A stretch of DNA of 64,000 bases from Sphaerolaimus hirsutus (taxonomy: Eukaryota; Nematoda; Chromadorea; Monhysterida; Sphaerolaimidae). The DNA is taken from assembly GCA_964036195.1 (NCBI GenBank), contig OZ038451.1, positions 6,700,529 to 6,764,528 on the forward strand. The letters run 5' to 3'. Positions 31,433 through 63,887 of this stretch are shown here, piece after piece. Below the pieces are notes generated by a model. It was not told where the DNA came from. It did no database searches and saw only the letters and a program-made list of their open reading frames with translations. A program made the translations under genes and the position numbers. Numbering within the stretch: position 1 is the first letter of the stretch; each line of letters starts with the position of its first letter.

Positions 31433-31609
31433 GGGTATGTTGAATTCGATAAACTACCGTCGATAAAATCGAAAATGACTCATTTTCGTGAACTCAAATG
31501 TGTTGAAAACAGATTTACGACTGCCCGAAATTTAGGGTGTAACATTTTTAGTGTGTGGACGAGTTACACTGAATCTTAATTACAGGAATTATGGTAGTCA
31601 AGCGCAAAG

Positions 31610-43970: not shown

Positions 43971-44039
43971 TCACATGTGCTCGGGATGATTTCTTAAACA
44001 CGATATCATATCTGCTGGTTTGATAAAGCCATAGCATGC
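43971..44039 (-). CDS. GPD1: GPD1 exon 8 with stop codon
   Basis: Acceptor CCCACACAG is followed by [15 protein letters not shown] and the family-typical C terminus NHPEHM, then TGA at 43973-43971. I see no perfect AATAAA just downstream, and a hAT-like element begins about 150 bases beyond the stop. Confidence 0.96.
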   Translation of the reverse strand, partial: ACYGFIKPADMISCLRNHPEHM

Positions 44040-47000
44040 CTGTGTGGGAAAAAATCCTTTAAAGTCTTTATAAACCCGAACGTCCAAGTATTTATAAAAA
44101 TAAAAAAAATTAAAAAGTCGGACATCATACAGCGAATCTTTTCTAATGGAAGAGCGCTGCTCCATTTTTTGTCAACTTTTTGCCTGCCGCTATTTTTCAC
44201 CGATTTGTTACATATTTTTCATGCCGTTATATTAGAAGAAATACGGTAATGACGTCAATTTTTACTCCAATCTCAAAAAAGCCCGTTTTTCCACCGCAGT
44301 TTTCCCAGCTAACCCATTAATTCTGTCCCTCTGTCCAAATTTATTTCCGAAAATGAACAATGACAAAAAAAACTTAAAAAATCTCAAATAATCCCCCCCT
44401 CGGAACCTGATAAACAGCCTCAAACAGCGGGAATTTGTCGCACATAGAATGAGCCTCCAACATTTTGTGCACTTGTTCCGCTGTGTGCGGGCCTTGCAGC
44501 GACTGTCCATTTAGCATCTCAATTTCCAGTTCCTCGATCGACTGCGAATTTTTATTTTTTATTTTTGAGGTAATTTTTTATTTTTACTTTAGTTAAGGTC
44601 TCTTGTTGGAATCCATTTAGGCGTGTAAATTGTGGGAATGTTAAGCGTGCATTATTGTATTTTGTCAAAGTGTGATGCTATTACGGAACGCAGCCATTGA
44701 ATATGGAATTAAATTTCGAGCATTTTTAATAATATCGTCATATTTTGAGGCAGCACGCACAAAAAAAGGGAAACATATTATTAAAAATTCTAAAAAACCG
44801 AGCACCGTTACCGACAGGGTTAAAACGGTATCCCGATCGCGATCCCGAATCCCGAAAAATTTCGGGATTTTGTAGTCCCGATTCCAATCTCGTCACCTCA
44901 TTCCCCATCTCGAAAACTCAAAACACCAAACCTGACCCGGATCCCGAAATCTCAATCCCGATTGAACCCTACAAATAAGATCGTCCACCCCCCCCCCCCA
45001 CCCCGAAAAAACGCACCCTTCCAGTCCTGGCGAACGCCTCGCAAACTTTCCTATTTCTGCCGCCATAACAAGTAGTCACCAAATCGGCGATTCCGCAACT
45101 TTCGAAAAACGTCTCCAAATTGGAACCGGGATAGAAAAATTCCACAAATTTGGTCATTTCCATGAGACCCAGTCTAATTACCGCGGCTTTTGTGTTGTCG
45201 CCCATACCCAAACCGTCTGTGAAGCCGGCCGCGCAAGCGACCACGTTCTGAAGTTTGGAATTTTTGGGGTTTGAGAATTGTTACCGTATTACCTCGAAAT
45301 ACCCCCATGGGGGTTTATTATTTCACCAGCAAAATTTGAGGGGGGGGGGTTAATTCGAGGGGGGGGGGGGGTTATTCGAGGTTTTTTATTATTATTTCGT
45401 CAGAAATTTTCGTGAAATTCATAGTAAAGAATACGCTTTTTCATACACAAAAACGGTAACAAGCGTGAGAAAGTAGGTCATATTTGGGCTATAGGTGTAC
45501 ATCTGTACACAAATGAGCATAAAAGTGTCACTGCAATCCAAATTAGGTGTAAATACATCATGTACATTGCATACACGATGTCCATCATTCAGGAGGGGGG
45601 CTATTTCGAGGGGGGGGGTGTATTATTTCCCCAGCCCATTTTGAGGGGGGTTAATTCGAGGGGGGGTTAATTCAACAAGGGGATAATTCGAGGTAATACG
45701 GTATATTGATTACTGATTTTTCATATTGATTTTTGATTGGTGGAGTAGGAAGGATTTTTCTCTCATTTTCATGTCACATATCAAACGCTCATATACTCGG
45801 CGGACCGCAAAGAATGAGCTTAACATTGCTTATGTATTCACTTTCACAAAAAAAATTTTTAAGATTCGAATGTTTCATAGTGAATTACTATCATAGTTGG
45901 TCCATAGGCTTCGAAAAAAAATTTTTATAGGCCTCGGACATCAATAAATGTTACGATGATTCTATGCCCACACCAGGAAAATCTTTGAAAAATACCAAAA
46001 ATCAAAATCAATGCAGCCATCTAGGCGCAAAGTGACAACTTCACTCACCACCCAACAACAAAGGAACACAAATAGTCAGAACCCGGAAAAATGCAACAAA
46101 AGTGTACACAACCTTGAGCGCGCCGCATAGCTCGACAGTGTGCGCGTCATCGACAACAGTTATTCTGAAATCTTCAGTGTGGAACAGCTTTTTCAGAGTG
46201 TGACCCTGTTCTTCCGTGGCGCAGCCTGTAAAGTTTTTATAAAAAATCCGATTTTGTTGGTAAATTTTGTGATGGAGTCAATATAAATACATAAGCTAAA
46301 GTGGGGGGCTGGTTTCACAATTCGTCTCAAATTCAAATCTCGAATGTCGTCCTTCTAAATCGTTAGAGAGTGGTCAGTTTTGGCCACCGTAAACGCGAAA
46401 TAACACATATTTTACCAGTGAAACAGAACTAAGAGAACACAAGCACACATTTGAGCTTACTTACACACAGATTTGCACACATTTGAGCTTACTAAAGAAC
46501 GAGTCATTTTTAATTGCCGCCAGTATTGAACTAGCGCGTGGGGTCAACCTAAGCTCAGGGGTTTAGTAGGGGGGGGTCCCCCAAATCCGCCAGCTATCTA
46601 CCTATCTGGAGCTATTCGAGAAATTTTGTCCCAATTTTCGCCCAAAATCGCTCATTTTCATACATTGTTACAGCTTTTCACCTCAAGAATATCTATTTCA
46701 AGAATATGTATTCCATTGCCTATTTTCAGCTTTTTTGTTTACTATATACGTTAATATACCAATTTTTCACAGACTTTTACAGATTTTTCCCCTTTTCTTC
46801 CTTCTATACCTTGGAGAAACCTATATATTGAACCCCCGCGACCCCCCCCCCATTTTTTCAACCATCTATCCGGAGGAGCGATTTAGAATCTATATGAACC
46901 CCCGCGGGGGTCAAAATCTACAAAACCCTGACGTAGCCTATTCACTTGTTATACCCCCACCAACCAATTGTGGCTTCACAAAAATTCTCCGCGGCAACTT

Positions 47001-50000
47001 CATGGGCCAAATTTGCACCCATCAAAACAGCAGTTTCCACTCCCAGTAATTCTTGAATTTCTTCCGAAATCAGCTTGATTCCGCCGTCCTCGCGGATCGC
47101 CAGACCCTGAAAAATTTGGATTTGGAAATGTGCCAAATTGAATTTTTGTGATTAATTTTATTTATAAATGGGCTTGAAAGTTTTTTTGACGAATTACTGA
47201 ATCAAAAACAGGACACGTTTTCACATGCAAACTGCAAGCAAATAAACACGAACAGGTAAATAGGAGTCCTGCACCGTGTAAAGTGTCAAATGTCATACAA
47301 ATTTGTCAAATGTGATGCAAAATGTGAAAATTCATTTGACATTTTTGTTAAATTCACATTTCGCATAACATTTGATACATTTGTATGACATTTTACATGA
47401 CATTTAACACTTAACAGGGTGTGCGACCGCCCCAAGGGACAAACATGGGGTTCAGACGGGACTGGGATTTAGATTGAGCTTTTCATTTTCCGCATATCGA
47501 ACCGATACCAGGTACCAATTTTTAATCCGTTGAATGACCGGTGGTTTTCGGGAAATCTCGATTTAGCTGTTCTGTTGCTTTTTGTGAAGCTTTCGAATGC
47601 CATAATTTACCCAAGAAGCATTACTCGACTAGAAAAATTATCCGGACTAGGAAAGAGACCAAAAAAGTCCTGCCATTTTGCTGAACAATGGAATACAGTT
47701 CCGTTTGAATCCAAAAGACACATTTACATAGGAGACGTGAAAAAATAGGTTATGATGAAAATACATAAGGTGCAAGGGCACGCAAGGGGTGGGATTATAC
47801 GAGGTAGTGCCTAGGGTTGGCCGATGTTTTTTTAAAAAAAACATCGAGTTAAAAAAACGTTTTTTCCAACCCTAATAGTGCCTGCGCGATTTAAAAAGAA
47901 AATGTTTTAGAAAAATGGGGCCAATGAAAACCGTATAGCGAGAGAGAATAAGGGTGTTAATAGGAAAACCTGCTTTCGAATAGCGTTCAGATGGGGCACT
48001 TTGATTCCAAAATTTGCACATTTTCATGCACTGCACATTTTGCACATTTTCATGTGTCGATGCCACATATTCTAAGGTTACAAAAATTGAAAAATTTGAA
48101 AAAAGTAACGCGTCACTTTTCCAACTTTTTCAAAACTTTACTTCACATCTCACTCATCACAACTCACTTACCACTTTTCTTGTCACTTTACAACAGGGGT
48201 CTCCTAGGGGGGGGGGCTGGGGGGGGGGGGCTGCCCCCCCCCCAATCTGCCAGCTATCTATCTATCCCGGAGGCCGCTCAGCTATCTATCTATCCCGAGG
48301 CAAATTTTTTGGCTACTACCCCCAAAGACCCCCCCCCAAATCGCTCAGCTATCTATCTATCTGGAGTGGTTTTTGAGAAAATTTGCCCCAATTTTCGACC
48401 AAAATCACCAATTTTCGCACCTTTTTATAGTTTTTCACCTTCAAAATTGTGCTCTCCGGCTATATGCATGGTTATATGCCTGTTTTTAGCCATTTTAAAC
48501 CTACTTTTGACCACTTTTAACCGATTATTAGCGATTTTTTCCCCTTTCGGCCTTCTATGCACTGAAAAAGCCTATATATTTTGCCCCCACGAGCCCCCCC
48601 CAAGCCCCCCCCCCAGAAAATTTTTTCAGCTATCTATCCCTCCGGAGGAGCGATTTGCTATCTATCCAGCCCCCGCGAAGGCCAAAATCTTGGAGACCCC
48701 TGCTTTACAAGATACAAAATAAGTAGCCACAGATTTCACAAAGCCGGCCCCCATCTCCCAGTCGAACAAATTTTGGATGATATTTACATTTGCATATTTA
48801 CATATTAAGCAGAGCACTGCACATAAAGTTGAGTGCAGTGCAGTGCTTTTGGTAACTTTTGCTTACCCCAACAATGTGCAAACAGCTGTTTTGCGCTAGG
48901 ATTTGGTACACATTTTGAGATAAATATTTACGCTTTTTAATGGATTTTTACCTTTAGAAATTTGAATTTTGGAAAAGTGTCCAAAAATTCAAAAATTGTT
49001 TTACTAGAGATTTAGCTAGCCTTCAAGTTCTGGGTAAAAAGCTACGCGGAAAAAATACTTTCGTAAATATATATTATTACCAAAAATCACTGCTGTCACT
49101 TTGCTTTGCTAACTAAGTAACAAGTACCGAATATAAAAAATAAATAATTCAAGTGACACTATTCCAAAAAGTGAAATATTTTACACCTCATGTTGTAACT
49201 TTTACATAGAAGCCACAACGTGAAAATATTCACTGGAATACGGTAATCCCATACGGAGTAAACGCCCACCCAATCCAGATTTTGCTTTTTATAAATTTTG
49301 CTTTTTATACAGTGGATCAATTCAAAGCAGAGCACACACAGCACTACTCCTTTCTGCACATAATTAAATTTCTCTACTCGTCATGTGAGTAGGTACATTT
49401 TTATGTGAACTCGTAGGGTTGGAAAACTTTTTTTTAAATAAGTGTATGCAAGTAGAAATAGCAAAATGGTTTTATGGCGCTGGCGCCATTTGTATTCACC
49501 GCGCCACGGCGTGATTGGCGCCAACCAGGGACGTATCCAGGATTTTTGAGCGAGACTGTTTGCTCACAGCCCACGGCGAAGGGGGGGCTCAACCCCCCCC
49601 CCCCCGAAAATTGTACCTAAACAGTGATGGAATAGACAGAACTCTCTCTGCCAGCAGTGGCCGTCTACCAGTACGAATGACCGCCATGTAAATAAACTCA
49701 CTCTCAGGGGTTTCCTAGGGGGGGTAGGAAGGAGGGGGGTTAGGGGGGCGGGGGTTACCCTTGTAGTATATGTGCTTTTATATCCATTTTCACCTACTTT
49801 TAGCAATTTTCCTCCTTTTCTTCCTTCTATGCCTACATATTGAACCCCTGCGAAACCTACCCCACCAGAAATTTTTCAGCTCTCTATACCTCCGGAGGAG
49901 CGATTTGCTATCTATCCAACCCCCGGAGGGTCGAAATCTAGAATACCCCCGGGGGGGCTGGGGAGGGTGGCTGCCCCCACCCCAAATCCGCCAGCTATCT

Positions 50001-53000
50001 ATCGCGGAGGCCGCTCAGCTATCTATCTATTTTGGCTACTACCCCTTGAACCCCCCCCCCCAAATCGCTCAGCTATGTACCTACCTATCTGGAGAGATTT
50101 TTGAGAAATGTTGTCCTAATTTTTCGCTCAAAATCGTCAATTTTAATACCATTTTACCGTTTATCACCTTCAAAATCGCGGCTTTTGCCTATACGCATGT
50201 TTATATACCTTCAGCCTATTTTGGCTACTTTTAACCTGTTTTTGCGATTTTTTTCCCTTTCTGCCTTCTATGCATTGAAAAGCCTATATTTTTGCCCACG
50301 CTAGCCCCCAGAAAATTTTTCAGCTATCTATCCCTACGGATGTGCGATTTATTAACGATTTTTTTCGTCTTTCTGCCTTCTATGCACTGAAAAAGCCTAC
50401 ATATTTTGCGCCCGCGAGCCCCCCCCCCCCAGAAAAAAATTTCAGCTATCTATCCCTCCGGAGGAGCGATTTGCTATCTATACAGCCCCCGCGAGGGCCA
50501 AAATCTTGGAGACCCCTGCTCACTCTACCAATACATATGCATATGCGGCATGGAGGGGGTGACAGGCGCATGACGCAGCGTCAGGGGGGTGCCCCTCACC
50601 CCCCCCCCACCCTGGCTAACGTCCTAATTTGGAAGCACATTGGCTTATCTAAATACACCGTTTTATGTGCAGCACGACGTGGCGCCTACGAATGGCGCCA
50701 TTCCGCCACTGTGTCGGTTCAAATTTTAGGGGGGGGGGGTGAGGGAGGGGGTGCACTGATACGCACATCTGCCCATTACGCACATTTGCCCGTTTTTTTC
50801 ACTTGACACTTTTCCAAGTGATTTTCAGATATGAGTAAAATGAAAAACGCTGCGCAATGACATTAGTGAACTTTTTTCACTTCACTCATATCTGAAAATC
50901 ACTTGAAAAAGTGTCAAGTGAAAAAAACGGGCAAATGTGCGTATCAGGCCTGCCCCGGGTGAGTCTGCTGAAAAATCCTGCATACGCTCCCGAACTACAC
51001 CAACTTTTAATAACATGCATGCATGCATGCAGAAATGTAGGCTTTGACACTAATGACATTTTTGCGCGCATGCATTATAAAAAACGCAAAAACATTAATA
51101 CCTGTGTAAATAGTGTTTAGTATGTACAGGGTGCGGCAATTTAGACCTACACTCTAGATTTCGAGTAATTTGTCACTGGGTGGTCGGATTAAGGTCAAAT
51201 TTTAGGTCAACATTAACAACCGACTTTAAACGGCAGAGACTGCAAAAATATCTATACACTTAATATACAAATCGTCTCACAACTTTTTGGGTACACTAAG
51301 TGGGAAACATCTACACTAAACCCCAAAAATAGAGGTTAGAAACATACAGGGTCAATAGTGTCAACTTAGGGTGCAAGCCACTGGACAGTGCATAACAAAA
51401 GAAGCAAAAAATACCTCATCTGTGCTGCTGTACGGTTTGAATATCGGTCTGGGCTGGAAAAAAACGACACTTTTGATTTTCTGGTACATCTAAATACTTA
51501 TAATTCGCTATATATATATGACCTATTAGCCTCCAGTACATAACTCGCACTGGACTTATGTACCTAGTTCGTACGCAAAATGTGCGCGTACAGCAACCCA
51601 GACACAAAAATCTAAATTTAACTGATTTCGAGGTGAGAAAATGAGTTATATATTACGATTTTTTGTGGAAAATGGCGCGATTTTACGTACGAACGTGGTT
51701 GCGTACTAAAAATCGTATCTGACAATTACTAAAAACTTGGCACCAGAACACACAATGGGTGGGCCATTAGATAAATAGAAAACTAGTCAAGTAACAAGTG
51801 GAAGAGCATTCTTTCAGAAAACAAAAATTTGATGAAAATTTGAACATTCAGTAAACAGAACGACAATTTTCAGGTTCGAAAATACCTATACATTTGCATA
51901 AATATTTATATACGAGAGAATGTTTTTTATTTCAAACAGTCTAGTCAAGTGCAACACCCTGTGCCGAGTGAAATCCTTCTACATTTTTCGAGTTACGAGT
52001 TTACTTTTTGTCAAGCTGATGAGGCATGTTATGAGCCAAAAATATTGCCAGAAAGTTATAAAGGTAACCATAAAAATATTTATTTGGGAGTAGGACGGGA
52101 CGTGTTTTCGGGAGTGGTGAAAAAAGTTCTAGAAACATTGACAAAAAAAAATTTGAAGAAATAAAAATAAATCAGCACCAAAAGACCCGATTGCAGATTC
52201 CCCCAATTCAACGAAAATGCAAAATTTACTTTGGATAGCAGACACAGACGGGGGGGGGGATTTATAGTAATTTCAAAGCTGAATTAACAAAGAAAGATCA
52301 GAAAATTCAGCTTTCAGAAGGGATGGCCAAAAAAAGTTTGTTTTCAACGACCTGGGGGTTTTTTTCAATAAAACGGGGTGTTTTCCAAAAAGTTTTTTTT
52401 TGTAAAAGCGGTTTCTATGTTCGGGTTTAAAAAAAATTATTTAAAAAAAAACTTTGAAAAAAACCCTCGGCCATCCCTACCTTTAATCACACAAAACAAT
52501 AAAAATAAAATTTCTAACCTTGATTAATGAGATGGCGAGCGCGCCCTTTTTGATGTTGCCTTTAAGCGTATCGCAAATTTTGTCAACAAATTGATGGGGC
52601 ACAACGAACACCAAAATGTCCGCATCGATGCAAGTTTTCAGTAGATCGGGCTCGGCAACCTGCACAGGAATAAAAACATTCAAAATTATATGTTGTCAAT
52701 TTTGGACAATAAAATTTGTCAGTGACCGATTTTCACGTGACTTAAAATTTTCTTAAATGAAAAAATTACTAGGCATTTTCGATTTGTTACAGCAAATTCA
52801 TAAGCGTGGTAAGCATTAAGCTTTAAGTTAAGTTAACCAGTAAGCGGCGTTTACACGTTTTTTGGTAGATACCACAAAAATTTCGATTATTCTCAACCAT
52901 TTTTAGGATGAAAATCAATTAGCAGATAGATGGGACCAGAGGATTAGTAGCCAAAATCTTTGCCTCGGGATAGATAGATAGCTGAACAGCCCCGGTGATA

Positions 53001-56000
53001 GATAGACTGTATGGCGTTTGGGGGTGACGGTTTGTAACCCCCCTCCAACCCCCCCCCCATATTCCAAGATTTTGGCCCTCGCAGGGGCTGGATAGATAGC
53101 AAATCGCTCCTCCGGAGGGAGAGATAGCTGACAAAATTTTCTGGGGGGGGCTTGGGGGCGGGGGCACAATAAATGGGCTTTTTCAAGGTTAAGAAGGCAG
53201 AAACGAAAAAAATCACTAATAATCAGTTAAAAGTAGCCAAAAGTATGTTTTAAACAGCTAAAAATAGGTATATAACCATGTATATGGCCGGAAAGCACGA
53301 TTTTGAAGGTGAAAAACTATAAAAAGGTGCGAAAATTGGTGACTTTGAGCAAAAATTGGGGCAAAATTTCTCAACACCCACTCCAGATAGATAGAAAGCT
53401 GAGCGATTTGGGTGGGGTCTTTGGGGGTAGTAGCCAAAAATTTTGCCTAAGGATAGATAGATCCGGGTTACCCCCCCCCCCCAAAACCGCCCAGCTATCT
53501 CTCTATTCCGGAGGCCGCTCAGCCATCTATCTATCCCGGAGGCAAAATTTTGGCCTACTACCTCTTAAACCTACCCCCCCAAATCGCTCAGCTATCTACC
53601 TATCTGAAGCGATTTCTGAGAAACTATACCCCAATTTTCGCTCAAAATCGCTATTTATCATACCTTTTTATAGATTATCACCTCCAAAATCACGAGTTTT
53701 TGTTCCTATTTACCTATTTTCAGCTATTTTTAGTACTACATGCTCTTGTATACCCATTTTGAGCAATTTTACACCTACTTTTAGCGATTTTTCTCCGTTT
53801 TCTTCCTTCTACACCCTGAAAGAGCCTATATATTGAACCACCACAACCCCCCCCCCCAAAAAAACAAAATTTTCCAGCTATGTATCCCTCCGGAGGAGCG
53901 ATTTGCTATCTATCCAACCACTCGTAGGGTCAAAATTCAAGCTACCCCTGGCTTCACTGCATGGAACAATACCTATGTTTTATAGATTACGTAAAAACGC
54001 ACACTAGAAAACATATTTTTACAGAAAACATCGCTAGCGAGGCCGCGTAGAACAAATCCTCCGACAGCATGAAAAAAGTGTGGTCTAGCGTGCATCATTA
54101 CGGAATCTATGGAATCAGGGACGTAGCCAGGATCAGGGGTCTCCAGGATTTTGGCCCTCGCGGGGGCTGGATAGATAGCAAATTGCTCCTCCGGAGGGAT
54201 AGATAGCTGAAAAAATTTTCTGGGGGGGGGGCTGGGGGGGGGCTTGGGGGGGCTGGCGGGTAGGGTTCAAACGGGATCCCGATCCCGGATCCCGTGAAAT
54301 TCCGGGATTTACCAGTCCCGATCCCGATCCCGAAACCCCAATCCCGATCCCGATCCCGAAATCTTAAAAATACCAATCCCGATCCCGATCCCGAAAGTTT
54401 TCAAATCCCGATCCCGATCCCGAGAAACTCCCAAGTCCGGGATCCCGATCCCGGAAAAATTAGTGGAAATTATAAAAGGTGAAATAATGACGTTTTTGCA
54501 TGCAAAAAAGTGGATGCAAACCCCCAGCGTCAATTTTATGCCACTTTTCTGGCATCCAACAGTGTTTTGAGACCTTTATGAACAACTGTGAATGCCAGAA
54601 AAATGGCCAAAATCTCTATCCCTAGAACCCAATCCCGATCCCGGAAAAATGCCTATCCCAATCCCGATCCCGATCCCGTGACCCCAATCCCGGCCAATCC
54701 CGATCCCGAAATCTCAAAAAACCAATCCCGATCCCGATCCCGATCCCGAAACCCCAATCCCGATCCCAATCCCGAAATCTCAAAAAGTGAATCCCGATCC
54801 CGATCCCGATCCCGAAAAGTCAATCCCGTTTGAACCCTACTGGCGGGGGCACAATATATAGGCTTTTTCAAGGTTAAGAAGGCAGAAAGAGGAAAAAATC
54901 GCTAAGAATCAGTTAAAAGTAGCCAAAATTAGGTATAAAATGGCTCAAAATAGGTATATAACCATGTATATAGCCAGAAAGCCCGATTTTGAAGGTGAAA
55001 AACTATAAAAAGGTGCGGAAATTGGTGATTTTGAGCGAAAATTGGGGCAAAATTTCTCAAAAAGCCCCCCCAGCCCCCCCCCTCTAGGAGACCCCTGGCC
55101 AGGATTTTTGAGCGGGGGGGGCGGCCATTGGCGTTGGCATTGGCGCCATATACCACTGTATAGGTATGTATTTCACATGCGCTTGCGCGCTAAATTTTTG
55201 AAAGATGTCTTCAAAATCGTTGCACCAGAAGTCGTTTCCCGACATTTCTCATGTCTCACCCGGGAAGGGGGGGGCGCCCCCCCCCCCGCCCCCCCTGGCT
55301 ACGTCCTTGTATGGAAGTTGATGTTTGCCGCAAGCAGTGAAGCTGATACAATCATGATCGATCGAGGCAACGCACGTGTAAAGTATTGCATGTTGATTCC
55401 ACAAGAATGGTTGAAAAATCGCATTTTTTGTCGTCTCAGAAAAACCGTGTAAACGCTGCCTTGCGCAAGGCCGTATCCAGGGGGGGGCGGGGGGGGGGCT
55501 GCAGCCCCCCCCCCCTCCCGGGGCGAGACCAAAAAGTGACCGGAAAATGCGACTTTTTCAACGTCAGCGTAAAAAATTTTGCGCGCAAGCGCGCATTCTT
55601 CACCAGACACAAGGTATTATCATCGGATTTGCTCCATGTGGCCACAAATCATTGTAAATACACTCAATGTTGATTTTTTTTGCTGTTTTGTATGTATATT
55701 TACATACATATACAGCATTCCATGGCGCTGACGCCAACGCCAATGGCGCCAAGGCGTGGCGCCTACTAATGGCTAAAATTCCGCCACTATGTAGCTAAAA
55801 TTTTAGGGGGGGGGGGCTGAGCCCCCCCCCCTCGCCGGCCTCCGTAAATAAGCAGCCCCCCCCCGCTCAAAAATCCTGGATACGTCCCTGGCCTTGCGCA
55901 AATTTGCCGACATAATTAGCATGGCGATTTTGTATCAAACGTAGCGCAATTACAATGTAAAAAAATATTTTTTTTCACTATCTATATGTCACATAAAAAG

Positions 56001-57688
56001 TTCCCTGAGATCAGCGGGACTTCTTTCTTATGTCGTATTAGGGATTGCCGGATTTTGCAAAACCTTGATTTAAAAAAAAGCTGCAAGTAAAAAAAACAAA
56101 CATTTTTTTAACCCAGCCAATCCCAAAAAACCTTACATACCACATTTTCAGGTATCCTTCTGCCGGGCAAATACTTGACATTTTCATGCTCAGTATTAAT
56201 AATCTCGGACAATTTCCTTCCATTGACCACCTCCTCAAAAACCCACATTTTTATGGCCGGGTCAAAAACTTGTGGATGTCTAATCACCGTTTTGCCCATT
56301 ATTCTGGCGATCGCTGAACCCCTGAAAGTGGGTGGTTTTATTTTATGCTGTAAAGTGATAAATACAGGGTTCTCCAAGATTTTGGCCCTCGCGGGGGCTG
56401 GATAGGTAGCAAATCGCTCCTCCGGAGGGATAGATACATAGCTGAAAAATATTTCTGGGGGGGGGGCTGGAGGGGCTTGGGGGGGGGGTGCTCGCGGGGG
56501 CAAAATATATAGGCTTTTTCAGTGCATAGAAGGCCGGAAGGGGGAAAAATCGCTAATAATCGGTTAAAAGTGGCCAAAAGTAGGTTTAAAATGGCTAAAA
56601 ACAGGCATTTAACCATGCATATAGCCGGAGAGCACGATTTTGAAGGTGAAAAACTATTAAAAGGTGCGAAAATTGCTGATTTTTAGCGAAAATTGGGGCA
56701 AAATACTCAGAAACCACTCCAGATTTGGGGGGGTTTTTGGGGGTAGTAGCCAAAAATTTTGCCTCGGGATAGATAGATAGCTGAGCGGCCTCCGGGATAG
56801 ATAGATAGCTGGCGGATTTGGGGGGGGGCAGCCCCCCCCCCCCCCCTAGGAGACCCCTGAGTCTATACGATATGATGCGCTGTCACGAACAGAGTGTGAA
56901 AAAAATTTACAGAAAACTGCAACGGAAATATTTTGCAATTGCTGGAAAACGAAAAAATGTCAGAAAACGGGGGATTTTTCACAATTTACACGAATTTTGC
57001 CGAAAACAGAATTGAGCATAAATGAAAAAACTGCAAAATACTGGAAAAACATAAAGTTGAGCCAGAAGACGGAAAATGAGCAGGAAAAACGACCACTGCA
57101 TTTGAAACTTATTTTACTAATTTTACAGTTAGCCAACTGTGTTTCCCAATACTAATTCAATGATAAAAATGTGCTAATCACTGGACATTAGGGGTGGCCA
57201 AAAATGTTTTTTAACGACCGTTTTTTGGCGGTTTGGAGTGATGTTCAGTACAAAAGTATTGCATACGGCGCATGACGCGGGTTAACTGGTGTGCAACAGA
57301 CGTGTAAATTATTTGATGAATTATTTCTGATAATGCTGTCTGTTGCACACCCATTGACACATGCCACGCACCGTATGCAATACTTTTGTACTGAACATAA
57401 CTCTATTTAATCTTTTTAAACGTTTTTTGAAATAAAAACGTTTTTTATTAAATAAAACGGTTGGAAAAAACATCCCTCGTGGACATCAAAACAAAAATCG
57501 AACATTTGTAAAAAAAACTCGTGCGAATTTGAACTTCACAAGTCATCAGCGTAACATCAGCGATGTCGTCGCACCAAATCGTACAGACCACTAGACCACG
57601 AAACGATGAAACGCTAAAAAATTCTTGAAAAACCTGGAAAAAGAACTGACCAGTTACCGGAACCGATTACGCACGACTTCAAAACCAT
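43971..57688 (-). CDS. GPD1: Cytosolic glycerol-3-phosphate dehydrogenase (NAD+), eight exons (gene span)
   Basis: The gene product interconverts dihydroxyacetone phosphate and glycerol 3-phosphate using NAD(H), which links glycolysis to lipid synthesis and the glycerophosphate shuttle. Exons 57651-57688, 56141-56321, 52519-52659, 46965-47106, 46113-46225, 45017-45247, 44407-44541 and 43971-44039 total 1050 bases, or 349 residues plus stop, which is the usual animal length. All phases fit. Visible landmarks are the dinucleotide-binding GSGNWG (8-13), [26 protein letters not shown] with the catalytic-type Lys-120, [38 protein letters not shown] and the terminal NHPEHM. The Trp-13 codon is split by intron 1. 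Introns hold about 12.7 kb, mostly transposons. No frameshift or stop is seen, so the gene looks intact. Confidence 0.97.
44128..44248. mobile_element. TACCGTA group C miniature in GPD1 intron 7
   Basis: TACAGCGAATCTTTTCTAAT at the left and TATTAGAAGAAATACGGTA at the right. It fills a third of the 367-base intron. Confidence 0.65.
44407..44541 (-). CDS. GPD1: GPD1 exon 7
   Basis: This is 45 codons (residues 283-327) between AATTCGCAG and CAG|GTTCCG. It reads [18 protein letters not shown] and ends [11 protein letters not shown]. The donor GTTCCG is weak, but the phase and homology fix it. Confidence 0.94.
44816..44970. mobile_element. CCCGAT-core element in GPD1 intron 6 (155 bp)
   Basis: AGGGTTAAAACGGTATCCCG at the left and ATCCCGATTGAACCCT at the right. 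It ends 47 bases from exon 6. Confidence 0.75.
45017..45247 (-). CDS. GPD1: GPD1 exon 6
   Basis: This is 77 whole codons (residues 206-282) between AACTTCAG and AGG|GTGCGT. It carries the catalytic-domain signature [16 protein letters not shown] and the substrate-binding [10 protein letters not shown], including Arg-269. It ends at EAFARTGR. Confidence 0.97.
45282..45703. mobile_element. TACCGTA group B element in GPD1 intron 5 (422 bp)
   Basis: TACCGTATTACCTCGAAATA to AGGTAATACGGTA, beginning 35 bases upstream of exon 6 and so close to its acceptor. Confidence 0.85.
46113..46225 (-). CDS. GPD1: GPD1 exon 5
   Basis: This 113-base exon runs from TTTACAG to AAG|GTTGTG and covers residues 168-205. 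It reads [19 protein letters not shown], the end of the interdomain helix that leads into the catalytic Lys-Asn pair. Confidence 0.95.
46556..46930. mobile_element. CAGGGGTCTCC-type element in GPD1 intron 4
   Basis: CAGGGGTTTAGTAGGGGGGG at the left and GTCAAAATCTACAAAACCCTG at the right. GCTATCTACCTATCTGGAG and CATCTATCCGGAGGAGCGAT lie inside. It ends 34 bases from the exon 4 donor. Confidence 0.7.
46965..47106 (-). CDS. GPD1: GPD1 exon 4
   Basis: The exon runs from acceptor TTTTTCAG to donor ATTG|GTTGGT and carries residues 121-167 plus one base. It holds IKLISEEI and [12 protein letters not shown]. The donor lies about 35 bases from the end of a GATAGATAGC-type element in intron 4. Confidence 0.96.
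47262..47425. mobile_element. TGTCAAATGTCAT-word inverted-repeat element in GPD1 intron 3
   Basis: GTGTAAAGTGTCAAATGTCA at the left mirrors TGACATTTAACACTTAACAG at the right, with ACATTTGAC words between. It is akin to the AGACCCTGTAAA group. Confidence 0.6.
47813..47875. mobile_element. 63-bp hAT-like MITE with exact target duplication
   Basis: AGGGTTGGCCGATG at the left and CCAACCCTAA at the right surround a T/A-rich hairpin. TAGTGCCT is duplicated exactly at 47805-47812 and 47876-47883. Confidence 0.82.
48194..48702. mobile_element. hAT-like CAGGGGTCTCC element with exact duplication (509 bp)
   Basis: The ends are CAGGGGTCTCCTAGGGG and CAGGGGTCTCCAAGATTTTG (reverse strand). CTTTACAA is duplicated at 48186-48193 and 48703-48710. 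The interior has AGCTATCTATCTATCC repeats and the GATTTGCTATCTATCCAGCC block. This is the reference copy. Confidence 0.92.
48711..49460. other. GPD1 intron 3, no other feature seen
   Basis: AT-rich unassigned intron sequence. Confidence 0.4.
49466..49640. mobile_element. GGCGCC relic followed by a solo CAGGGACGTATCCAGG end
   Basis: ATGGCGCTGGCGCC at 49475 and GTGATTGGCGCC at 49511 precede CAGGGACGTATCCAGGATTT at 49529, a G/C-rich stretch and AGTGATGGAATAG. It is a fragmentary hAT-like copy. Confidence 0.5.
49705..50518. mobile_element. hAT-like CAGGGGTCTCC element, rearranged (814 bp)
   Basis: The exact duplication CTCACTCT lies at 49697-49704 and 50519-50526. The inside holds more than one copy of the family's GCTATCTATCC and GAGCGATTTGCTATC blocks, so a second copy or an internal duplication lies within. 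Confidence 0.85.
50519..51120. repeat. GGCGCC fragment and a 190-bp inverted repeat
   Basis: Bases 50758-50950 form an inverted repeat: TGATACGCACATCTGCCC and TTTTCACTTGACACTTTT on the left, GGGCAAATGTGCGTATCA on the right. It is flanked by GGCGCC words (50690-50700) and CCCCGGGTGAGTCTGC. Confidence 0.6.
51126..51948. other. GPD1 intron 3 with a solo mariner-like end
   Basis: TACAGGGTGCGGCAATTTAG at 51125-51144 is typical of a mariner terminus, but no matching right end is seen. The rest is unassigned. Confidence 0.4.
52319..52478. mobile_element. AGGGATGGCCAAAAA element (160 bp)
   Basis: AGGGATGGCCAAAAAAAGTT at the left and AAACCCTCGGCCATCCCT at the right. Related to the elements at 57191-57477 and 47813-47875. 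It ends 41 bases below the exon 3 donor. Confidence 0.68.
52519..52659 (-). CDS. GPD1: GPD1 exon 3
   Basis: This is 47 whole codons (residues 74-120), between CCTGTGCAG and AAG|GTTAGA. It contains [13 protein letters not shown] and ends in SLIK, where the final Lys is the catalytic-type residue 120. Confidence 0.97.
52920..53951. mobile_element. Two CAGGGGTCTCC-type copies in opposite orientation
   Basis: Bases 52920-53410 carry the family reversed (GATAGATAGCTGA, then GGAAAGCACGATTTTGAAGG). Bases 53470-53951 carry it forward (CCAGCTATCTCTCTATTCCG to CAAGCTACCCCTGGCTTC). Together they can form a long hairpin in intron 2. Confidence 0.65.
54134..55097. mobile_element. Middle element of the nest: hAT-like CAGGGGTCTCC copy
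   Basis: CAGGGGTCTCCAGGATTTTG to CTAGGAGACCCCTG, with the exact duplication GCCAGGAT at 54126-54133 and 55098-55105. The duplicated target is itself part of the outer element's end. Confidence 0.93.
54261..54839. mobile_element. Inner element of the nest: TAGGGTTCAAACGGGATCCC with (CCCGAT)n
   Basis: TAGGGTTCAAACGGGATCCC and TCCCGTTTGAACCCTA are flanked by the exact duplication CTGGCGGG (54253-54260 and 54840-54847). The inside is mostly degenerate (CCCGAT)n hexamer arrays in two blocks around a unique middle. Confidence 0.93.
55466..55890. mobile_element. hAT-like CAAGGCCGTATCCAGG element with exact duplication (425 bp)
   Basis: CAAGGCCGTATCCAGG and CAGGGACGTATCCAGG (reverse) are flanked by GCCTTGCG at 55458-55465 and 55891-55898. 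The inside resembles 43390-43816, including the GCGCGCAAGCGCGC and GGCGCC blocks. It is a shorter sister of the 1047-bp copy beyond GPD1. Confidence 0.92.
56141..56321 (-). CDS. GPD1: GPD1 exon 2
   Basis: Acceptor CACTTTCAG supplies the last base of Trp-13. The exon then reads GSAIARIMG through HENVKYLPG to IPENV (residues 14-73). The donor is GTG|GTATGT. This is the rest of the nucleotide-binding half. Confidence 0.97.
56364..56859. mobile_element. CAGGGGTCTCC-type element in GPD1 intron 1 (496 bp)
   Basis: CAGGGTTCTCCAAGATTTTG to CTAGGAGACCCCTG, near full length and reversed relative to 48194-48702. It starts only 42 bases upstream of exon 2. No clear duplication is seen at its edges. Confidence 0.8.
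57191..57477. mobile_element. AGGGGTGGCCAAAAA element with a 160-bp palindrome in GPD1 intron 1
   Basis: AGGGGTGGCCAAAAATGTTT and GGTTGGAAAAAACATCCCT bracket an inverted repeat (57241-57399) with arms like GTTCAGTACAAAAGTATTGC. The flanks CTGGACAT and GTGGACAT match at 7 of 8. It ends about 170 bases from exon 1. Confidence 0.75.
57651..57688 (-). CDS. GPD1: GPD1 exon 1 (38 bases)
   Basis: This short exon was found by looking for the missing Rossmann start. It encodes [12 protein letters not shown] plus the first two bases of a Trp codon, then donor TG|GTCAGT. The start sits in a good context (GCAGCCATGG). With it the protein reaches 349 residues exactly, which strongly supports the call. 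Confidence 0.95.
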
Positions 57689-58493
57689 GGCTGCAAGTCT
57701 CGGAGAAAATCGCATAAGCTACCAAAAAACTGTTCACTCTACTTTAGCTGAAGCAGAATGTTCACCTATTGCGGTGCGGCTGAAAATGGCCGACCTTTAG
57801 AAATCAATTTCTTTTTTTATTTTCTTGAGCTGCAACTTTCGTTACTTCCGGAAAATGTCCGTTCGTTGCTTATTCATCTGATCTAAAAGCCGCAGCGTGT
57901 GATATAGATTACATAAAAAATTCATTTGAAAATTGTAGTTACAATTACATTCCGTCGCCGGTGCCGTAATTGCGTTTTTCTCACAACGTTTTGAATTGAA
58001 CAAAAAGTGCACCCAAAATTGACCGGCGATCGAGGAACGAGTGTTTTTTTGGCGTGTTGCCAACGTAGTGGGAAAATAAGGTGTTAATTTTATATTTCGT
58101 AAGTGTCACTTTTCTTCATTCTCGTTTGTTTGTCATTGTTTTTTTCATTCAGGAATGCTCACAGCGCGTTGAATTAGGCACCATTATAACAAGGGATAAA
58201 AATTATATGTAAACCTGTACAGAAAGTATGTTTTTAGAATATTTCAATTCGTTGTTGTAAATACGGCACACTGGGAACTTTTTTCACTTGACTGCACAAA
58301 ATATGGAGATTAAATTCCAGAATATTCAGCCCTCATTTTAACGTGAAGACAATCAGGGTATTTTCCCAAATGGCACAAATTGCTTCATTTCTCCATATTT
58401 TCGCATTGAAATGTGTCTAAGGAATTATTATCCACAAAAATTTCAAAATGGAATTATTTACAATTACATTTCCAGTGTGCGCGCACAACCACA
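57689..58493. other. Intergenic region between the fusogen-like stop and the GPD1 start
   Basis: This 805-base interval must hold the GPD1 promoter and the fusogen-like 3' end. A minus-strand AATATAAAATT near 58092-58102 could be a TATA box. I see no unambiguous poly(A) signal. It contains no obvious transposon. Confidence 0.4.
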
Positions 58494-58776
58494 TCAAACA
58501 TCAGTAAACTTTCTTGTGCTTCCAGAGTTTGACAAAGTCGGACAGAAAAGACACTTGGCAAGTGGCCAAATACACTTTTTCACTATACACAAGGACAAAA
58601 GTATCACAAAAACAAAAATGACTATTTGCATGCCAAAAGCCAGAATTTCCGTGGGCGATTTGAGACCATTGAACCATTCATTTGGATTCAAATACTGTAC
58701 AAAGTTGTCTAGGCCGATTTCGTTGCAATTCGTGCAGTCCCCTCGGTTTGATGCCCACTGATGTGGCACTGTGTAC
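58494..58776 (-). CDS. Fusogen-like gene exon 6: stem, transmembrane segment, tail and stop
   Basis: The acceptor TTTAATCCCAG supplies the G that completes Trp-545, then reads YTVPHQW in frame. It encodes a CTNC pair, the NPNEWFNGL stem, a hydrophobic run of about 22 residues (from ILAFGMQIV to LSLCIV) and a short tail starting KKCIWPL with further cysteines. The run of charged residues after the hydrophobic stretch supports an Nout-Cin orientation. The exon is 2.4 kb from exon 5, but the phase fits with nothing between. Confidence 0.72.
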
Positions 58777-61700
58777 CTGGGATTAAATCTTTTTATTTAG
58801 GTGGTATTATGCATACTTTACTATGTAACAAGTTGCAAGTAAAATATCAAATCGTGCAAATCTTTGTCACTATTTACCAATAAATTCCTGTACCAATACC
58901 AATCCCTACCCTTTAAGTGGCGTTTACACTGCATTTTGTGCCGACAAAAAAAGAAGACAAAAAGTTTCATAATTCCACAATCAAGTTCCATATCTGCAAG
59001 ACAAAGCAGTGAAGTATACTCACTAGTTAAGTGTACACACATGCCAATTTTGCAGATAATTCGGGCATGTGGTTCACGACTTAAAAACAAATTACATTTG
59101 TCGGTTCGGTTTTCGTTTTGAAACCGCACCGACAAGTGTAATTTGCTTTTAACTCTTGAACGACACGCGCAAATTATCTGCAAATTGGCATGTGTGTACA
59201 CTTAACTAGTGAGTATACTTCAGTGCCTTACTCTGCAGATATGGAACTTTATTCCGGAATTATGGAACTTTTTCACTCGTTTTTTTGTCGGCACACAAAA
59301 CCGTGTAAACGCCGCTTTAGACAGCGTTCACACTGCATTTTTGTGACGACTTCGACAACACTTGAAAAAGTTCCATAAGTCGAGTGAAAAGTTCCATATT
59401 CATGAGTGAATGTGGTAAAGTATACATACCACCTACGTGGGTGTATATGCATGTCAAATTTCAGATGAATCGTGTGTGTTGCTCAAGAGTTATACATGTT
59501 TATAAAACAATTTGCCACTGTTGGAGCCCGACAGGTGCGCCGACAATTTAAAAAAAATTGTCGTCACATTGCGCGAGTGTGACGACAAGTAAAATATTTG
59601 ATCTAGTTGTCACAATGAGCATGGCTAAAAAAGGGTCGCTACTTGTCGCCAATAACGAGGCCGACCAGTCGTCACACTCATGAAAATCTGCTAAAGAATA
59701 GATGGGAGAATGCCCTTTTACCTTTGTAGTGTATTTACCCTGCTAATTAATTTACCTTGTGGGCTTGTCCATTTACTTTACGTATCAATGTACCTTACAG
59801 GCATGAGATTCACCCTACACAACAAACATTCATCCACAATGAGGGTATGTATTTACCCTAACACAAAGTATGCACACCTGTTCGTGTTAAACCTAGGGTT
59901 TGGATTTACCATTCACCACACAGAGTTTAATACCATCAAGTTTTTAATCCCCAGAACGCAGATTATCGACTGTACTAACACATGCATGTCACTCTTTTGT
60001 TTGCACAAAGCTTTGCATCAATGATTTTTGTCAGCATGCCGATTTTGTTATGTAAGTATTTAGAATGATATCACTGTTTTTTTCAGTTTTGTTTTCTGAC
60101 AGTTGAAAAATTGTTCTTGTGAAATGACTAATTTTGGTAAACTTGAAGAATGGCCTTTATTGTTGTTGTTTAGTGTAGAATTAGACTAGTTTTGTTATGC
60201 CAAATGCTTATGCTTGCCTATACATCTGCATTTCAACATTGCACAAATATTTTTGCTAATGAGAATGTCCTATTTATATATACTTGTCATGCACTAAATG
60301 TCTCTGTCTACATAATGAATATTTACACTCATCTGCACACTCCAAAATGCACCAAACAGACATAGGTACTTATGAATCATGCCTTTGAGTTCACTGCCCT
60401 ATACTTTATTATGGGGGTAAATCCACTCATGTGAAGGTAAATTTTTACCACTTGAAAATTACTTCCAGGGTAAATGCATACCCTGCCAAGGTAAATTGAC
60501 AACACGTATGGTAAATATTTGTTTTGTTAAATGGGCAGGGGATTAAGGTAAATACCTTCAAATAGTAAATGGGCGACAGGGTAAAAACAAAGGGTCTTGA
60601 ATAGATTTGTCATCACAAAACGGTCTGTTACGAGTAAGATCTATTGTCATCACACAAGTGCAGTGTGAAAGGGGCCTTAACTAGTCTGAAAAAATGCTGC
60701 CTATGCACATTCCAAAAAAACTCCATCTGAAAATCACTGGTAAGTTTAATATTAACATTATTCAGTTTTTAAAATAATTGTGAGCTTTCTGTCAATGAAG
60801 CATTTTCATACAGTAATTTACCAACACAATTTTTATCAATTCCATGAGCTTTTGAAGACATCCCATTATTGATCTTTGATTTAAAGATCCAATGCTAAAC
60901 CAGCTGTATGAATGCTCAATGTTAATGACCACCATGATTTAAAGAATGAAAAAGTGGCTGTTGAAGAAGATCAATCAGGCTATACACATTAACCATTATA
61001 CATCAAGTGCAAAGTGTGGAAATGAATAAACAAATTAATGTTCCTAATTAGTGAAAATGAAAACTCTAAATTCAAAATTAGATTTCCCTTATAGATTGAC
61101 AGTCCTGCAATTTTTTTGTAGTAACCAATACCTGACTAATACTTGAAAGCCCACTTACCATCTAATAGGTTTCTTCTCAAATTTCAGCCATTTGCACATC
61201 TCTAAGTGTGGCTTCCCTGCAGGATGCAGACAAACCCATCTCGGCCCATCCACATTTGGTGGTAAACTGATTACATTTGTATGGTTGTTGGGCCTTCCAC
61301 CACCCACATAGGCACTAAATGCCAGGTCAATTTTGAGCCTTCCCTCATTTTCATAGCATGACCCTATTAATGTGCCACTGGCATTAATTAGTGTCAAATT
61401 CAGGAAACAATTTGATGATCTGTCCAATTGTATCTGACCCACAAAGCCGGCTATTTTACTCATGTGTCTATAGAGTGTCAATTTGGCTGCAGTGTCAAGT
61501 GTTAGATCAAGTTCTAAATATGGACTAGATTTGTGTGCAACCAGCACATATCTGGCATCATCACTGAGATAGCTTTGTGATGGCACAATCCAGGGTTCTG
61601 ATTCATCTACAAGGTGGCCCAAGTGAAAACTGGGCACTGTTTTGTCACTGAATGAGAAGGTGTTTGATTCACCCACATAGAAGTCTGCATTGTAGCTCTC

Positions 61701-63887
61701 TGTGTACTGCTGTGTTTTGCAGTCTTTTATTGCCAGATGGTGCATGTCCTGCATTTTGTCATTATCAGCAGGGTTTTTAGAATGTTTTTTTCTCTCCTCA
61801 AAATGAATTTATTTGATTTTCATTGTGAAGATGCAAAGCCTAGAGTATATATTTATCATGTTGAAAGTCTCACCTGCATTTTGACAGCCCCATTTCTGAC
61901 CATCCATTTTCCATCCTGAAATCTAAACCATCCCAATTTTCCCACATTCCACTCATGTGCCAAATTCAGTGGGACACCTGTTCTGATTCTACTTTCATTT
62001 GCCAGTTTGAAAAATGGCATTCCAGCTGGCAACCCAGCCTGTGGGCCCTCACCACTGACTCTAAGCTCTATTGAATTTTCACTGTTCAAAGTGAATGTTT
62101 GCCCCTTATTCAGTGAGATCTTGAGCTCATCATTGCCTGATAAAAACGAAATTGGAATTATATAGCTACTGTGCAGGTTAATTTGTATTTTTTTCATGTG
62201 TAAAACCAGTAGGTGCCACAAAAAGTTCTCACAAACAGTTCTGTGTGCAATCCTCATTGGACTGGTTTGGAATTCATCAATTTTTTGTGTTTGAGGTCCT
62301 TTTTTAAAAAAAAACCCACAAAACCCCAGTCCAACCCACCCTCCATTCTCCACCTCTCATCAGCACCCATTTTGTACATTCTAAATCTGAAACCAGCCAC
62401 AGTGAGGGGCTGCCCCAGTACCACAGCAGTCATTTGCCACTTATTGTAAGGCTGAATGTGAATGCTGCAACATGTCTCTGAATCTGAACTGGTTGCATGG
62501 CAGCCAGCAGATGATGTGGATGCATGGTATACTTGGTAGCAGGCTGAAGTGCCTGTGGGATGTTTGTAGGTTTGGAGGTTTACATGTTGTGCAACAAAAA
62601 AAAAAGTGGAAGCCATGTGAAAGAAATTAAATGTATGTGTGTTTAGTTAGATGGAATATAGTGGATTTCATTGTAAGGTTTGAGGTCAGTAGACTTTACA
62701 TGCAGGTTACTTGAGATTTTGAGAAAACTTTGAGTTTATTACATTTTTTAATGGTGGTTATTGCTACCACGTTAGATAGATACCAATTATCTACTTGAAG
62801 ACATGAACATTGCACAACATTTCTGAGTTTGGTGTTTTCAAAACATAATACTCAGTAACCTTCCCTGCCTGAAGTTCAGGAAATCACAAAAAAACTCCTT
62901 CCAATAAAAAAAAAACAACCTAAACATTCACCTTGGCTAAAACAAACAATCAACCCAAAATGGAACCCACCATCATTTTGCCCACTACAATTTCTATACT
63001 TCCAGCCAGCATTGCAATGGTCATCACCCCCTGAACAATCACAAATACAATCTGATCTAATTTGGGGTAGGCCAAATGTATATTTTGATCTGACTGGGTA
63101 GTGCTGCTCTAGGAGGTTGTACTCAATTAGGTAGAGGAGGGTGCCATTGTAGGTTGTCGACTGCGTGGGGGGGGGGGGGTTGGCATGGGTTAATTTGGGG
63201 TGGGGTTTTTAACCAAGTTTTGTCACATCAAGAACTAGTGATGTGAAGGCGCCATGGTGCCTTTGGTGCTTTACTGCTTGTGGCACTTTTGTCTAAGTGC
63301 TATTGGCGCTTGGCACTATTTTTATCTGATGCCAGGAAAAAACATCTGACGCTGGCGCTTGCTTGGTGTTTGCGCCAAAACACAAAGCGCCATGGCGCTC
63401 AGCGCCATCTTGCTTTGGCGCCATTGGCGCTTGGAACTGGAAGTCGGAAAAGCGCCTGGCACCAAAATCGAGAACTCACATCCTCAAGACTTCCTTCCTC
63501 GCTACCAAACAGCTTATTTGTGTCAAATCGTTCTATACTCTCTCTCGATTTGTCCACAAAATCCACTTGAAGGCACATCGAGTCACCCAAAGCCATTTTC
63601 ATTTGAATATTAGTGAGCACTTTAGCGTGGGCCACCCTGTGTACAGTATCCCTTTCGTATAATTGGCCAGTAATAACCGAAGTTCTTTTGCATTTCGGCG
63701 CCAAATTTGATGGTAATATAGTCGGCGGAATGTTTTTTGCCATAGATGATAAATCGCGTATCGAATGCACTGATATCGGCAGCGTAATCGATAGAATTAG
63801 ATACAGGGTGGGTCGGAAAATGGGATGGAATTTATTCGTTGTTTCCGCGGTGTTTCCGATTTTGTGATGTTTTCGTCTGCGCCGCAT
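58494..63887 (-). CDS. EFF-1/AFF-1-like cell-cell fusogen, six exons (gene span)
   Basis: Joining exons 63480-63887, 63001-63160, 62340-62552, 61874-62136, 61159-61748 and 58494-58776 gives 1917 coding bases, or 638 residues plus stop, with every splice phase matching. The protein reads as a type I membrane protein. It has a hydrophobic N-terminal segment (about residues 29-42), an ectodomain with 17 cysteines including a C-x-C-x-C cluster at 174-178 and a CC pair at 217-218, and sequons at 141, 307, 465, 470 and 503. One membrane span lies at about 589-610, followed by a 28-residue tail. Size, topology, the cysteine-rich middle and the NPNEWFNGL stretch before the membrane fit what I recall of nematode EFF-1/AFF-1 and their relatives. 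Those proteins are class II-fold fusogens that act on the cell surface from both partner cells. The family call is from recall, not a search. The remaining uncertainty is the exon 2/3 junction and the extreme N terminus. Confidence 0.72.
58911..59319. repeat. 409-bp inverted repeat in intron 5 of the fusogen-like gene
   Basis: CTTTAAGTGGCGTTTACACT at the left and GTGTAAACGCCGCTTTAG at the right. The long imperfect arms include ACTAGTTAAGTGTACACACA paired with TGTGTGTACACTTAACTAGT. The centre is around TTGTCGGTTCGGTTTTCG. Confidence 0.82.
59317..60680. mobile_element. Inverted-repeat element adjoining the 409-bp repeat, with nested TTTACC/GGTAAA repeat
   Basis: TTAGACAGCGTTCACACTGC at the left and GCAGTGTGAAAGGGGCCTTAA at the right. 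A second inverted repeat (59709-60593; CCTTTTACCTTTG versus the GGTAAA-rich 60410-60590) is nested inside. Its CATACCACCTACGTGGGTGT block is shared with 3817-4174. Confidence 0.6.
61159..61748 (-). CDS. Fusogen-like gene exon 5 (residues 349-545)
   Basis: This 590-base exon is the longest clean coding block in the window. The acceptor is AAAATGCAG and the donor is the consensus ATG|GTAAGT, splitting the Trp-545 codon after TG. It holds three sequons (NLT 465, NAS 470, NHT 503) and cysteines at 358, 462, 479, 521 and 533. This looks like the membrane-proximal ectodomain. Confidence 0.78.
61874..62136 (-). CDS. Fusogen-like gene exon 4 (residues 261-348)
   Basis: Exon 4 lies between acceptor TTTTTATCAG and the near-consensus donor CAG|GTGAGA, ending in phase 0. 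It encodes a cysteine-free beta-rich segment with a sequon (ANES, residue 307). The intron before it is 203 bases and the one after it only 125, short compared with the TE-filled introns elsewhere in the window. Confidence 0.72.
62340..62552 (-). CDS. Fusogen-like gene exon 3 (residues 190-261)
   Basis: Exon 3 enters after CATCCCACAG and leaves at ATGGAGG|GTGGGT in phase 1. It carries cysteines at residues 194, 207, 217 and 218 around CCSIHIQPYNKW. A second AG 8 bases into the exon would also be compatible if the junction were shifted. Coding quality is good, and the frame continues smoothly into exon 4. Confidence 0.68.
62553..63000 (-). other. Intron 2 of the fusogen-like gene
   Basis: AT-rich sequence without a recognisable repeat. 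Its start depends on the weak exon 2 donor. Confidence 0.5.
63001..63160 (-). CDS. Fusogen-like gene exon 2 (residues 137-189)
   Basis: The acceptor is a C-rich tract ending ACGCAG, and the exon enters in phase 0, matching exon 1. It encodes an N-glycosylation sequon (YNGT) and the cluster IRSDCICDCSGGDDHCN. The donor is read as TGGA|GTATAG, which leaves one base and joins exon 3 in phase. The donor is weak. Other phase-1 GT sites lie nearby, for example inside GGGGGTGATG upstream, but that one would discard the GGDDHC segment. The frame stays open only to 62945, so the exon cannot extend much further. Confidence 0.6.
63236..63468. mobile_element. GGCGCC-rich AGTGATG-family element in intron 1 of the fusogen-like gene
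   Basis: AGTGATGTGAAGGCGCCATG at the left. The interior alternates TTTGGCGCCATTGGCGCTTGG and CAAAGCGCCATGGCGCTC. Its right edge is within about 10-20 bases of the exon 1 donor, so most of the 319-base intron is this element. Confidence 0.75.
63480..63887 (-). CDS. Fusogen-like gene exon 1 (start to residue 136)
   Basis: Exon 1 runs from an ATG at 63887 to a strong donor, GAT|GTGAGT, in phase 0. The start is followed by a basic stretch (MRRRRKHHK) and then a hydrophobic run LYLILSITLPI, which suits a signal peptide with an unusually long n-region; cleavage near residue 42 is plausible. The next methionine, at residue 49, would drop this segment. The part most likely to be conserved is about residues 70-110, which includes GDSMCLQVDFVD. 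Bases 63803-63822 read like a mariner terminus, so the first ~30 residues may be recent. A true upstream exon beyond the window cannot be excluded. Confidence 0.65.

What the first reader, a model, noticed from the sequence alone, without database searches (positions are those of the whole stretch)
58494..63887. Apparently intact EFF-1/AFF-1-type cell fusogen gene in a non-nematode-looking genome
Six exons join in phase into a 638-residue type I membrane protein with a cysteine-rich ectodomain and one C-terminal span. Seen directly: open frames, splice sites, the C-x-C-x-C cluster, sequons and the membrane segment. From family knowledge: FF fusogens are about this size, share this topology, adopt a class II fold and fuse cells homotypically. 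Inference: this is a member. The neighbouring GPD1 gene keeps a full set of seven introns, which is not what I would expect of a compact nematode genome, so this could widen the known distribution.
Basis: partly seen in the sequence, partly recalled or inferred. Interest (0 to 1): 0.9.

Follow-up and report, generated by a model that had tools for sequence, protein, structure and literature searches.

The report
Nematode cell-fusion protein gene
The sequence holds an apparently intact gene for a known type of protein that makes neighbouring worm cells merge, and the gene beside it suggests that the genome is itself a roundworm's, so the find is mostly ordinary.

Summary
Six minus-strand exons (63887 to 58494) join in phase at GT-AG junctions into one open frame of 648 residues, not 638. 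The product matches the whole Pfam EFF-AFF profile (479.6 bits, cut-off 25, E 1.1e-143) and solved C. elegans EFF-1 (E 1.1e-67). The 14 ectodomain cysteines in the aligned EFF-1 part are all kept, with one clear membrane span. It is an FF-family gene, most likely for a homotypic cell-cell fusogen.

The exciting half is not supported. The only argument for a non-nematode genome was the intron-rich GPD1 neighbour. I built that gene (349 aa, 8 exons). Most of its top hits with a visible organism are nematodes, and a tree groups it with 17 named nematodes at 100/99 support, as their neighbour, not inside them. Long introns occur in nematodes, and FF genes outside nematodes were already reported. 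So: a new member of a known family, in an unnamed and probably early-branching nematode. A close ally of nematodes is not excluded; the whole-genome search did not complete.

The parts
63480..63887 (-). FF gene exon 1 (start codon, possible signal peptide, first ectodomain part)
   Evidence: open frame, GT donor, phase 0; the stretch 63698-63534 aligns with Steinernema P0001 at 25% identity, E 0.014
62971..63160 (-). FF gene exon 2, with the C-x-C-x-C cluster (63049-63035)
   Evidence: AG/GT, phase 1; 50% identical to P0001 over 63142-62984; cysteines shared with EFF-1
62340..62552 (-). FF gene exon 3
   Evidence: AG/GT, phase 1; about 41% to P0001 in a match that runs slightly past the exon
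61874..62136 (-). FF gene exon 4
   Evidence: AG/GT, phase 0; about 35% to P0001
61159..61748 (-). FF gene exon 5; carries an extra cysteine pair, residues 472 (61409-61407) and 489 (61358-61356), seen in neither of the two compared proteins
   Evidence: AG/GT, phase 2; about 32% to P0001 in a match that runs past the exon; cysteine columns
58494..58776 (-). FF gene exon 6: end of ectodomain, membrane span (about 58649-58587), short cysteine-bearing tail, stop
   Evidence: AG acceptor, stop TGA; 42.5% to P0001; hydropathy
43971..57688 (-). Neighbouring GPD1 gene (glycerol-3-phosphate dehydrogenase), 8 exons, 349 aa; used to place the genome, not part of the fusogen

Best explanation
This is a complete, apparently functional FF-family gene (EFF-1/AFF-1 type, Pfam EFF-AFF) in the genome of a nematode, probably one branching outside the named nematodes compared. 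Shown: the open spliced frame, the full-length family match, the conserved cysteines and the C-terminal membrane span. Inferred from the family: a class II ectodomain on one membrane anchor is displayed on the surfaces of two neighbouring cells. The ectodomains engage homotypically across the gap, without an inserted viral-type fusion loop, assemble into trimers and pull the two membranes together. The result would be a syncytium or a sculpted single cell.
For: Pfam EFF-AFF E 1.1e-143 over the whole profile. EFF-1A chain 4cyl E 1.1e-67 over residues 126-636; the next three sequences are other EFF-1A constructs. Steinernema glaseri EFF-AFF protein E 9.3e-114, 34% identity, 97% coverage. In the aligned EFF-1 stretch, 14 of 14 ectodomain cysteines and both tail cysteines are kept. 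One TM span. GPD1 neighbour: of the 48 hits ranked above Limulus, 29 show an organism and 26 of these are nematodes; tree support 100/99 for grouping with 17 named nematodes. The need for FF proteins on both membranes, the post-fusion trimer and the acidic domain II tip come from passages in PMC9259645, PMC8784728, PMC8777248 and PMC4050280.
Against: No transcript or protein evidence. Signal peptide not clearly scored: no N-terminal 19-residue window exceeded hydropathy 1.4. The fold was not modelled. The genome could not be identified: nine whole-genome requests did not complete. The named nematodes in the tree are all of one large clade (recalled), and no row is labelled as Enoplea, tardigrade, nematomorph or priapulid; five unnamed rows branch further out than the window. 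The window's GPD1 has only 3 of 6 nematode-typical residues, and its tree partner P0011 has 1 of 6. Three of the 29 named top hits are not nematodes. The second FF search, with an alignment, scored no protein at E <= 0.001, so few relatives were compared. One cysteine of EFF-1 (570, in the span region) is not kept. EFF-1 and AFF-1 orthology could not be separated.
Confidence: 0.85

Rival explanations
1. The FF gene belongs to a non-nematode animal, for example an ally of nematodes such as a nematomorph, priapulid or tardigrade.
For: GPD1 lies outside the group that holds all 17 named nematodes (100/98) and carries 3 of 6 residues typical of them; five unnamed rows of unknown origin lie further out still. 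GPD1 introns reach 5412 bp. FF genes are known outside nematodes (PMC4723337 passage).
Against: GPD1 and the 17 named nematodes form a 100/99 group against 11 arthropods, molluscs and vertebrates, each of which carries 0 of 6 of those residues. The FF matches found are to Steinernema and C. elegans, though those searches reached few relatives.
Confidence: 0.12
2. A relic or mis-assembled copy: the frame is open but the gene is not expressed, or exons of two copies were joined.
For: No RNA evidence; 638 against 648 residues is unexplained; a homopolymer run lies beside the acceptor of exon 2.
Against: All five junctions are GT-AG and in phase; the profile is matched end to end as a single stretch; the 14 EFF-1 ectodomain cysteines in the aligned part are kept, which a decaying copy would tend to lose.
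Confidence: 0.06
3. A related class II fusogen of another family, such as HAP2/GCS1 or a captured viral glycoprotein.
For: The closest protein found bears the source name 'HAP2-GCS1 domain-containing protein'.
Against: Only two families were listed at E <= 1: EFF-AFF at 479.6 bits and AsqO_C, below its cut-off (14.2 against 27); neither HAP2 nor a viral glycoprotein. No relative was confirmed in viral contigs: 66 pattern matches, none by tblastn. Five introns.
Confidence: 0.01

Closest known systems
C. elegans EFF-1 (PDB 4cyl, 4ojc)
   Same: Same domain over residues 126-636; all 14 ectodomain cysteines of the aligned part; one membrane span followed by a P-L-x-x-C-x-x-C tail motif
   Different: 147 of 494 aligned residues identical (30%); an extra cysteine pair at 472/489; cysteine 570 of EFF-1 not kept
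Steinernema glaseri EFF-AFF protein P0001 (source name HAP2-GCS1 domain-containing)
   Same: Full-length relative, 206 of 561 aligned residues identical (37%), sharing also the two N-terminal cysteines at 66 and 105
   Different: Shorter linker near residues 107-140; lacks the extra cysteine pair; whether it is EFF-1 or AFF-1 was not determined
HAP2/GCS1 and viral class II fusogens (fusexins)
   Same: Published common fold with EFF-1 (PMC9259645 and PMC8784728 passages)
   Different: No sequence-family match here

Membership tests
FF fusogens (EFF-1/AFF-1, Pfam PF14884) | Match to the curated family profile | tested here: met
   479.6 bits against cut-off 25, profile 1-467 of 467
FF fusogens (EFF-1/AFF-1, Pfam PF14884) | Conserved ectodomain cysteine pattern | tested here: met
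   14 of 14 EFF-1 cysteines in the aligned ectodomain stretch kept; EFF-1 residues before 84 were not available for comparison
FF fusogens (EFF-1/AFF-1, Pfam PF14884) | Type I topology: signal peptide, large ectodomain, one C-terminal span, short tail | tested here: inconclusive
   C-terminal span clear; N-terminal hydrophobic stretch (about residues 27-42) seen by eye but below the hydropathy cut used
FF fusogens (EFF-1/AFF-1, Pfam PF14884) | Class II fold | not tested
FF fusogens (EFF-1/AFF-1, Pfam PF14884) | Acidic tip of domain II in place of a hydrophobic fusion loop | tested here: inconclusive
   The segment between cysteines 178 and 185 is S-G-G-D-D-H, not hydrophobic, but that it is the tip was not established; the acidic tip itself is from a passage of PMC4050280
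FF fusogens (EFF-1/AFF-1, Pfam PF14884) | Homotypic cell-cell fusion activity | not testable with these tools
   Needs a cell assay
HAP2/GCS1 | Match to the HAP2-GCS1 family profile | tested here: not met
   Not among the two families listed at E <= 1
Host is a nematode | A neighbouring housekeeping gene groups with nematodes | tested here: met
   GPD1 with 17 named nematodes against 11 other animals, support 100/99; it is next to the named ones, not among them, and no row is labelled as Enoplea or as a near ally of nematodes

The most novel reading that the evidence does not exclude
The genome belongs either to an early-branching nematode that keeps a single FF gene from before the EFF-1/AFF-1 split, or to a close ally outside Nematoda. 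That would show that the somatic fusogen predates the syncytial body plan of crown nematodes, with an extra disulphide (cysteines 472 and 489) as a lineage-specific change. Copy number and host identity were not tested.
Probability: 0.2. Interest if true: 0.45.

Novelty: new member of a known kind. Interest (0 to 1): 0.22.

Why it matters
FF proteins are one of few proven cell-cell fusogen families. A full-length copy 30% and 37% identical to the two relatives compared, from a worm that seems to branch outside the well-sampled groups, is a useful data point for which residues matter and for when EFF-1 and AFF-1 diverged.

Tried and rejected
Search of the window's own assembly for other FF copies: the tool reported itself busy on all nine requests, so copy number and host identity stay open. 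Within the window itself, tblastn with the model at E <= 1 hit only its own six exons.

Wider FF sampling: one protein search found a single relative; a search with a three-row alignment scored no protein at E <= 0.001. With three sequences, EFF-1 or AFF-1 orthology cannot be decided; the pairwise identities are 206/561 (window-Steinernema), 147/494 (window-EFF-1) and 157/482 (Steinernema-EFF-1).

Viral contigs: 66 pattern matches, none confirmed as a relative.

Other genes in the window for host placement: 20 of the 37 ORFs of at least 110 aa (list) were scanned against Pfam, none with a match above its cut-off. Of the 17 others, those that are FF exons were covered by the FF model; the rest were not scanned.

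I did not submit it.

A 'window with arthropods' clade test (part C) was ill-posed on an unrooted tree and is not used. In one search the count of unnamed rows printed as 19 is 18: one mollusc name was also caught by my label filter; the groups tested were not affected. The promoter/terminator scan is for bacterial-type signals and says nothing here.

Full report
What was claimed.

The gene is there. On the minus strand I rebuilt exons 63887-63480, 63160-62971, 62552-62340, 62136-61874, 61748-61159 and 58776-58494. All five introns (319, 418, 203, 125 and 2382 bases) are GT-AG, and the phases fit. It has 22 cysteines, six sequons and one strong C-terminal hydrophobic span. The N-terminal signal peptide is plausible by eye but did not pass the hydropathy cut used.

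It is a family member. Pfam lists EFF-AFF (PF14884) at 479.6 bits, E 1.1e-143, covering the entire profile in one stretch; the only other family at E <= 1 is AsqO_C, below its cut-off. Against solved structures, the four best sequences are all EFF-1A, best E 1.1e-67; the fifth and last is a non-significant Bam G (E 0.69). Against 5.8 billion proteins one relative passed E <= 0.001, from Steinernema glaseri, at E 9.3e-114. That search reaches only relatives sharing exact five-residue words, so a single hit does not mean rarity. A second search with an alignment of three found none at that threshold. In the three-way alignment all 14 ectodomain cysteines of the available EFF-1 stretch (residues 131-528) are kept, and so are the two tail cysteines in the P-L-x-x-C-x-x-C motif; a cysteine of EFF-1 in the span region (570) is not. 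The window protein has two more, at 472 and 489, where Steinernema and EFF-1 have R/R and L/V. As they lie 17 residues apart and both are absent from the two relatives, an extra disulphide is a reasonable guess, not a result.

The host. The search found 4559 relatives and listed 120. Of the 48 listed hits ranked above Limulus (65% identity), the first single-length hit with a visible non-nematode name, 29 show an organism: 26 are nematodes, and the three others (P0003, P0007, P0010) are over-long entries at 53-63% identity. The best nematode hits reach 70-71%. A maximum-likelihood tree of 47 rows (45 of the 120 listed hits, the window and human) puts the window gene in a 34-row group at 100/99 whose named members are all nematodes. 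Within it, the window pairs with an unnamed metagenome sequence, P0011 (91/82), just outside the 27-row group (100/98) that holds all 17 named nematodes. Six alignment columns have a residue shared by at least 85% of the named nematodes and found in none of the 11 other animals; the window carries 3 of 6, P0011 1 of 6, the 11 others 0 of 6. The simplest reading is a nematode that branches before the named ones, which are Rhabditida in the broad sense (that classification is recalled). A close ally of nematodes is not excluded: no row was labelled as one, and five unnamed rows of unknown origin branch further out, at modest support.

PMC3890508 (passages) gives median introns of 69 bp in C. elegans, 405 bp in Romanomermis and 907 bp in A. 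suum, and calls the small introns of rhabditid nematodes likely a derived feature. The twelve introns here have a median of 607 bp. Long introns are therefore no argument against a nematode.

How it probably works. EFF-1 and AFF-1 must be on both membranes (PMC9259645 and PMC8784728 passages). EFF-1 is monomeric on native membranes while its ectodomain crystallised as a post-fusion trimer, and its domain II tip is acidic, not hydrophobic (PMC4050280 passage; PMC8784728 passage). Whether trimers form in trans or in cis is still debated there. By homology, this protein should fuse cells that both express it. Nothing here tests that.

Known or new. FF members in nematodes, a small number of arthropods, a ctenophore, a chordate and a protist are stated in PMC4723337 (passage). 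A table in PMC3890508 marks AFF-1 '-' in two columns, which I take to be Romanomermis and Trichinella (header not seen). From memory only, Avinoam et al. 2011 (not held) tested a Trichinella member. Seven paper searches (listings only, some capped at 10 or 20 rows) showed me no report of this gene, but without the organism's name they could hardly have found one. Of the papers I saw passages of six (PMC3890508, PMC9259645, PMC4723337, PMC8777248, PMC8784728, PMC4050280) and read none in full. I file it as a new member of a known kind.

Noticed in passing
58915-59050 and 59182-59317: A 136-base inverted repeat, 86% complementary with 131 bases between the arms, lies in the large last intron of the fusogen gene; it looks like a small transposable element.
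   Followed up: no
at least 15 places, e.g. 2482-2534, 7095-7145, 18822-18871, 35201-35313, 41947-41984, 45340-45381: Short tandem arrays of a 13-22 base unit like CCCCCCCTCGAAATA recur across the window in both orientations.
   Followed up: no
31079-31453, 46570-47049, 47964-48722, 49767-50234, 50279-50806, 53276-53836, 56108-56682: Several ORFs, partly inside GPD1 introns, share by eye peptides like '[17 protein letters not shown]' or '[19 protein letters not shown]', pointing to an interspersed repeat; the five of the seven regions that were scanned had no Pfam match at E <= 0.1.
   Followed up: partly
54312-54828: Degenerate ATCCCG hexamer satellite, in the second GPD1 intron.
   Followed up: no
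38689-38760: One tRNA-Gln (ttg) gene, plus strand.
   Followed up: no
within 16780-17115: A run of unknown bases, seen as X in two ORFs: probably an assembly gap.
   Followed up: no
57691-57697: The GPD1 start codon on the minus strand follows a CTTGCAG acceptor-like sequence by two bases, as a trans-splice site might; suggestive only.
   Followed up: no
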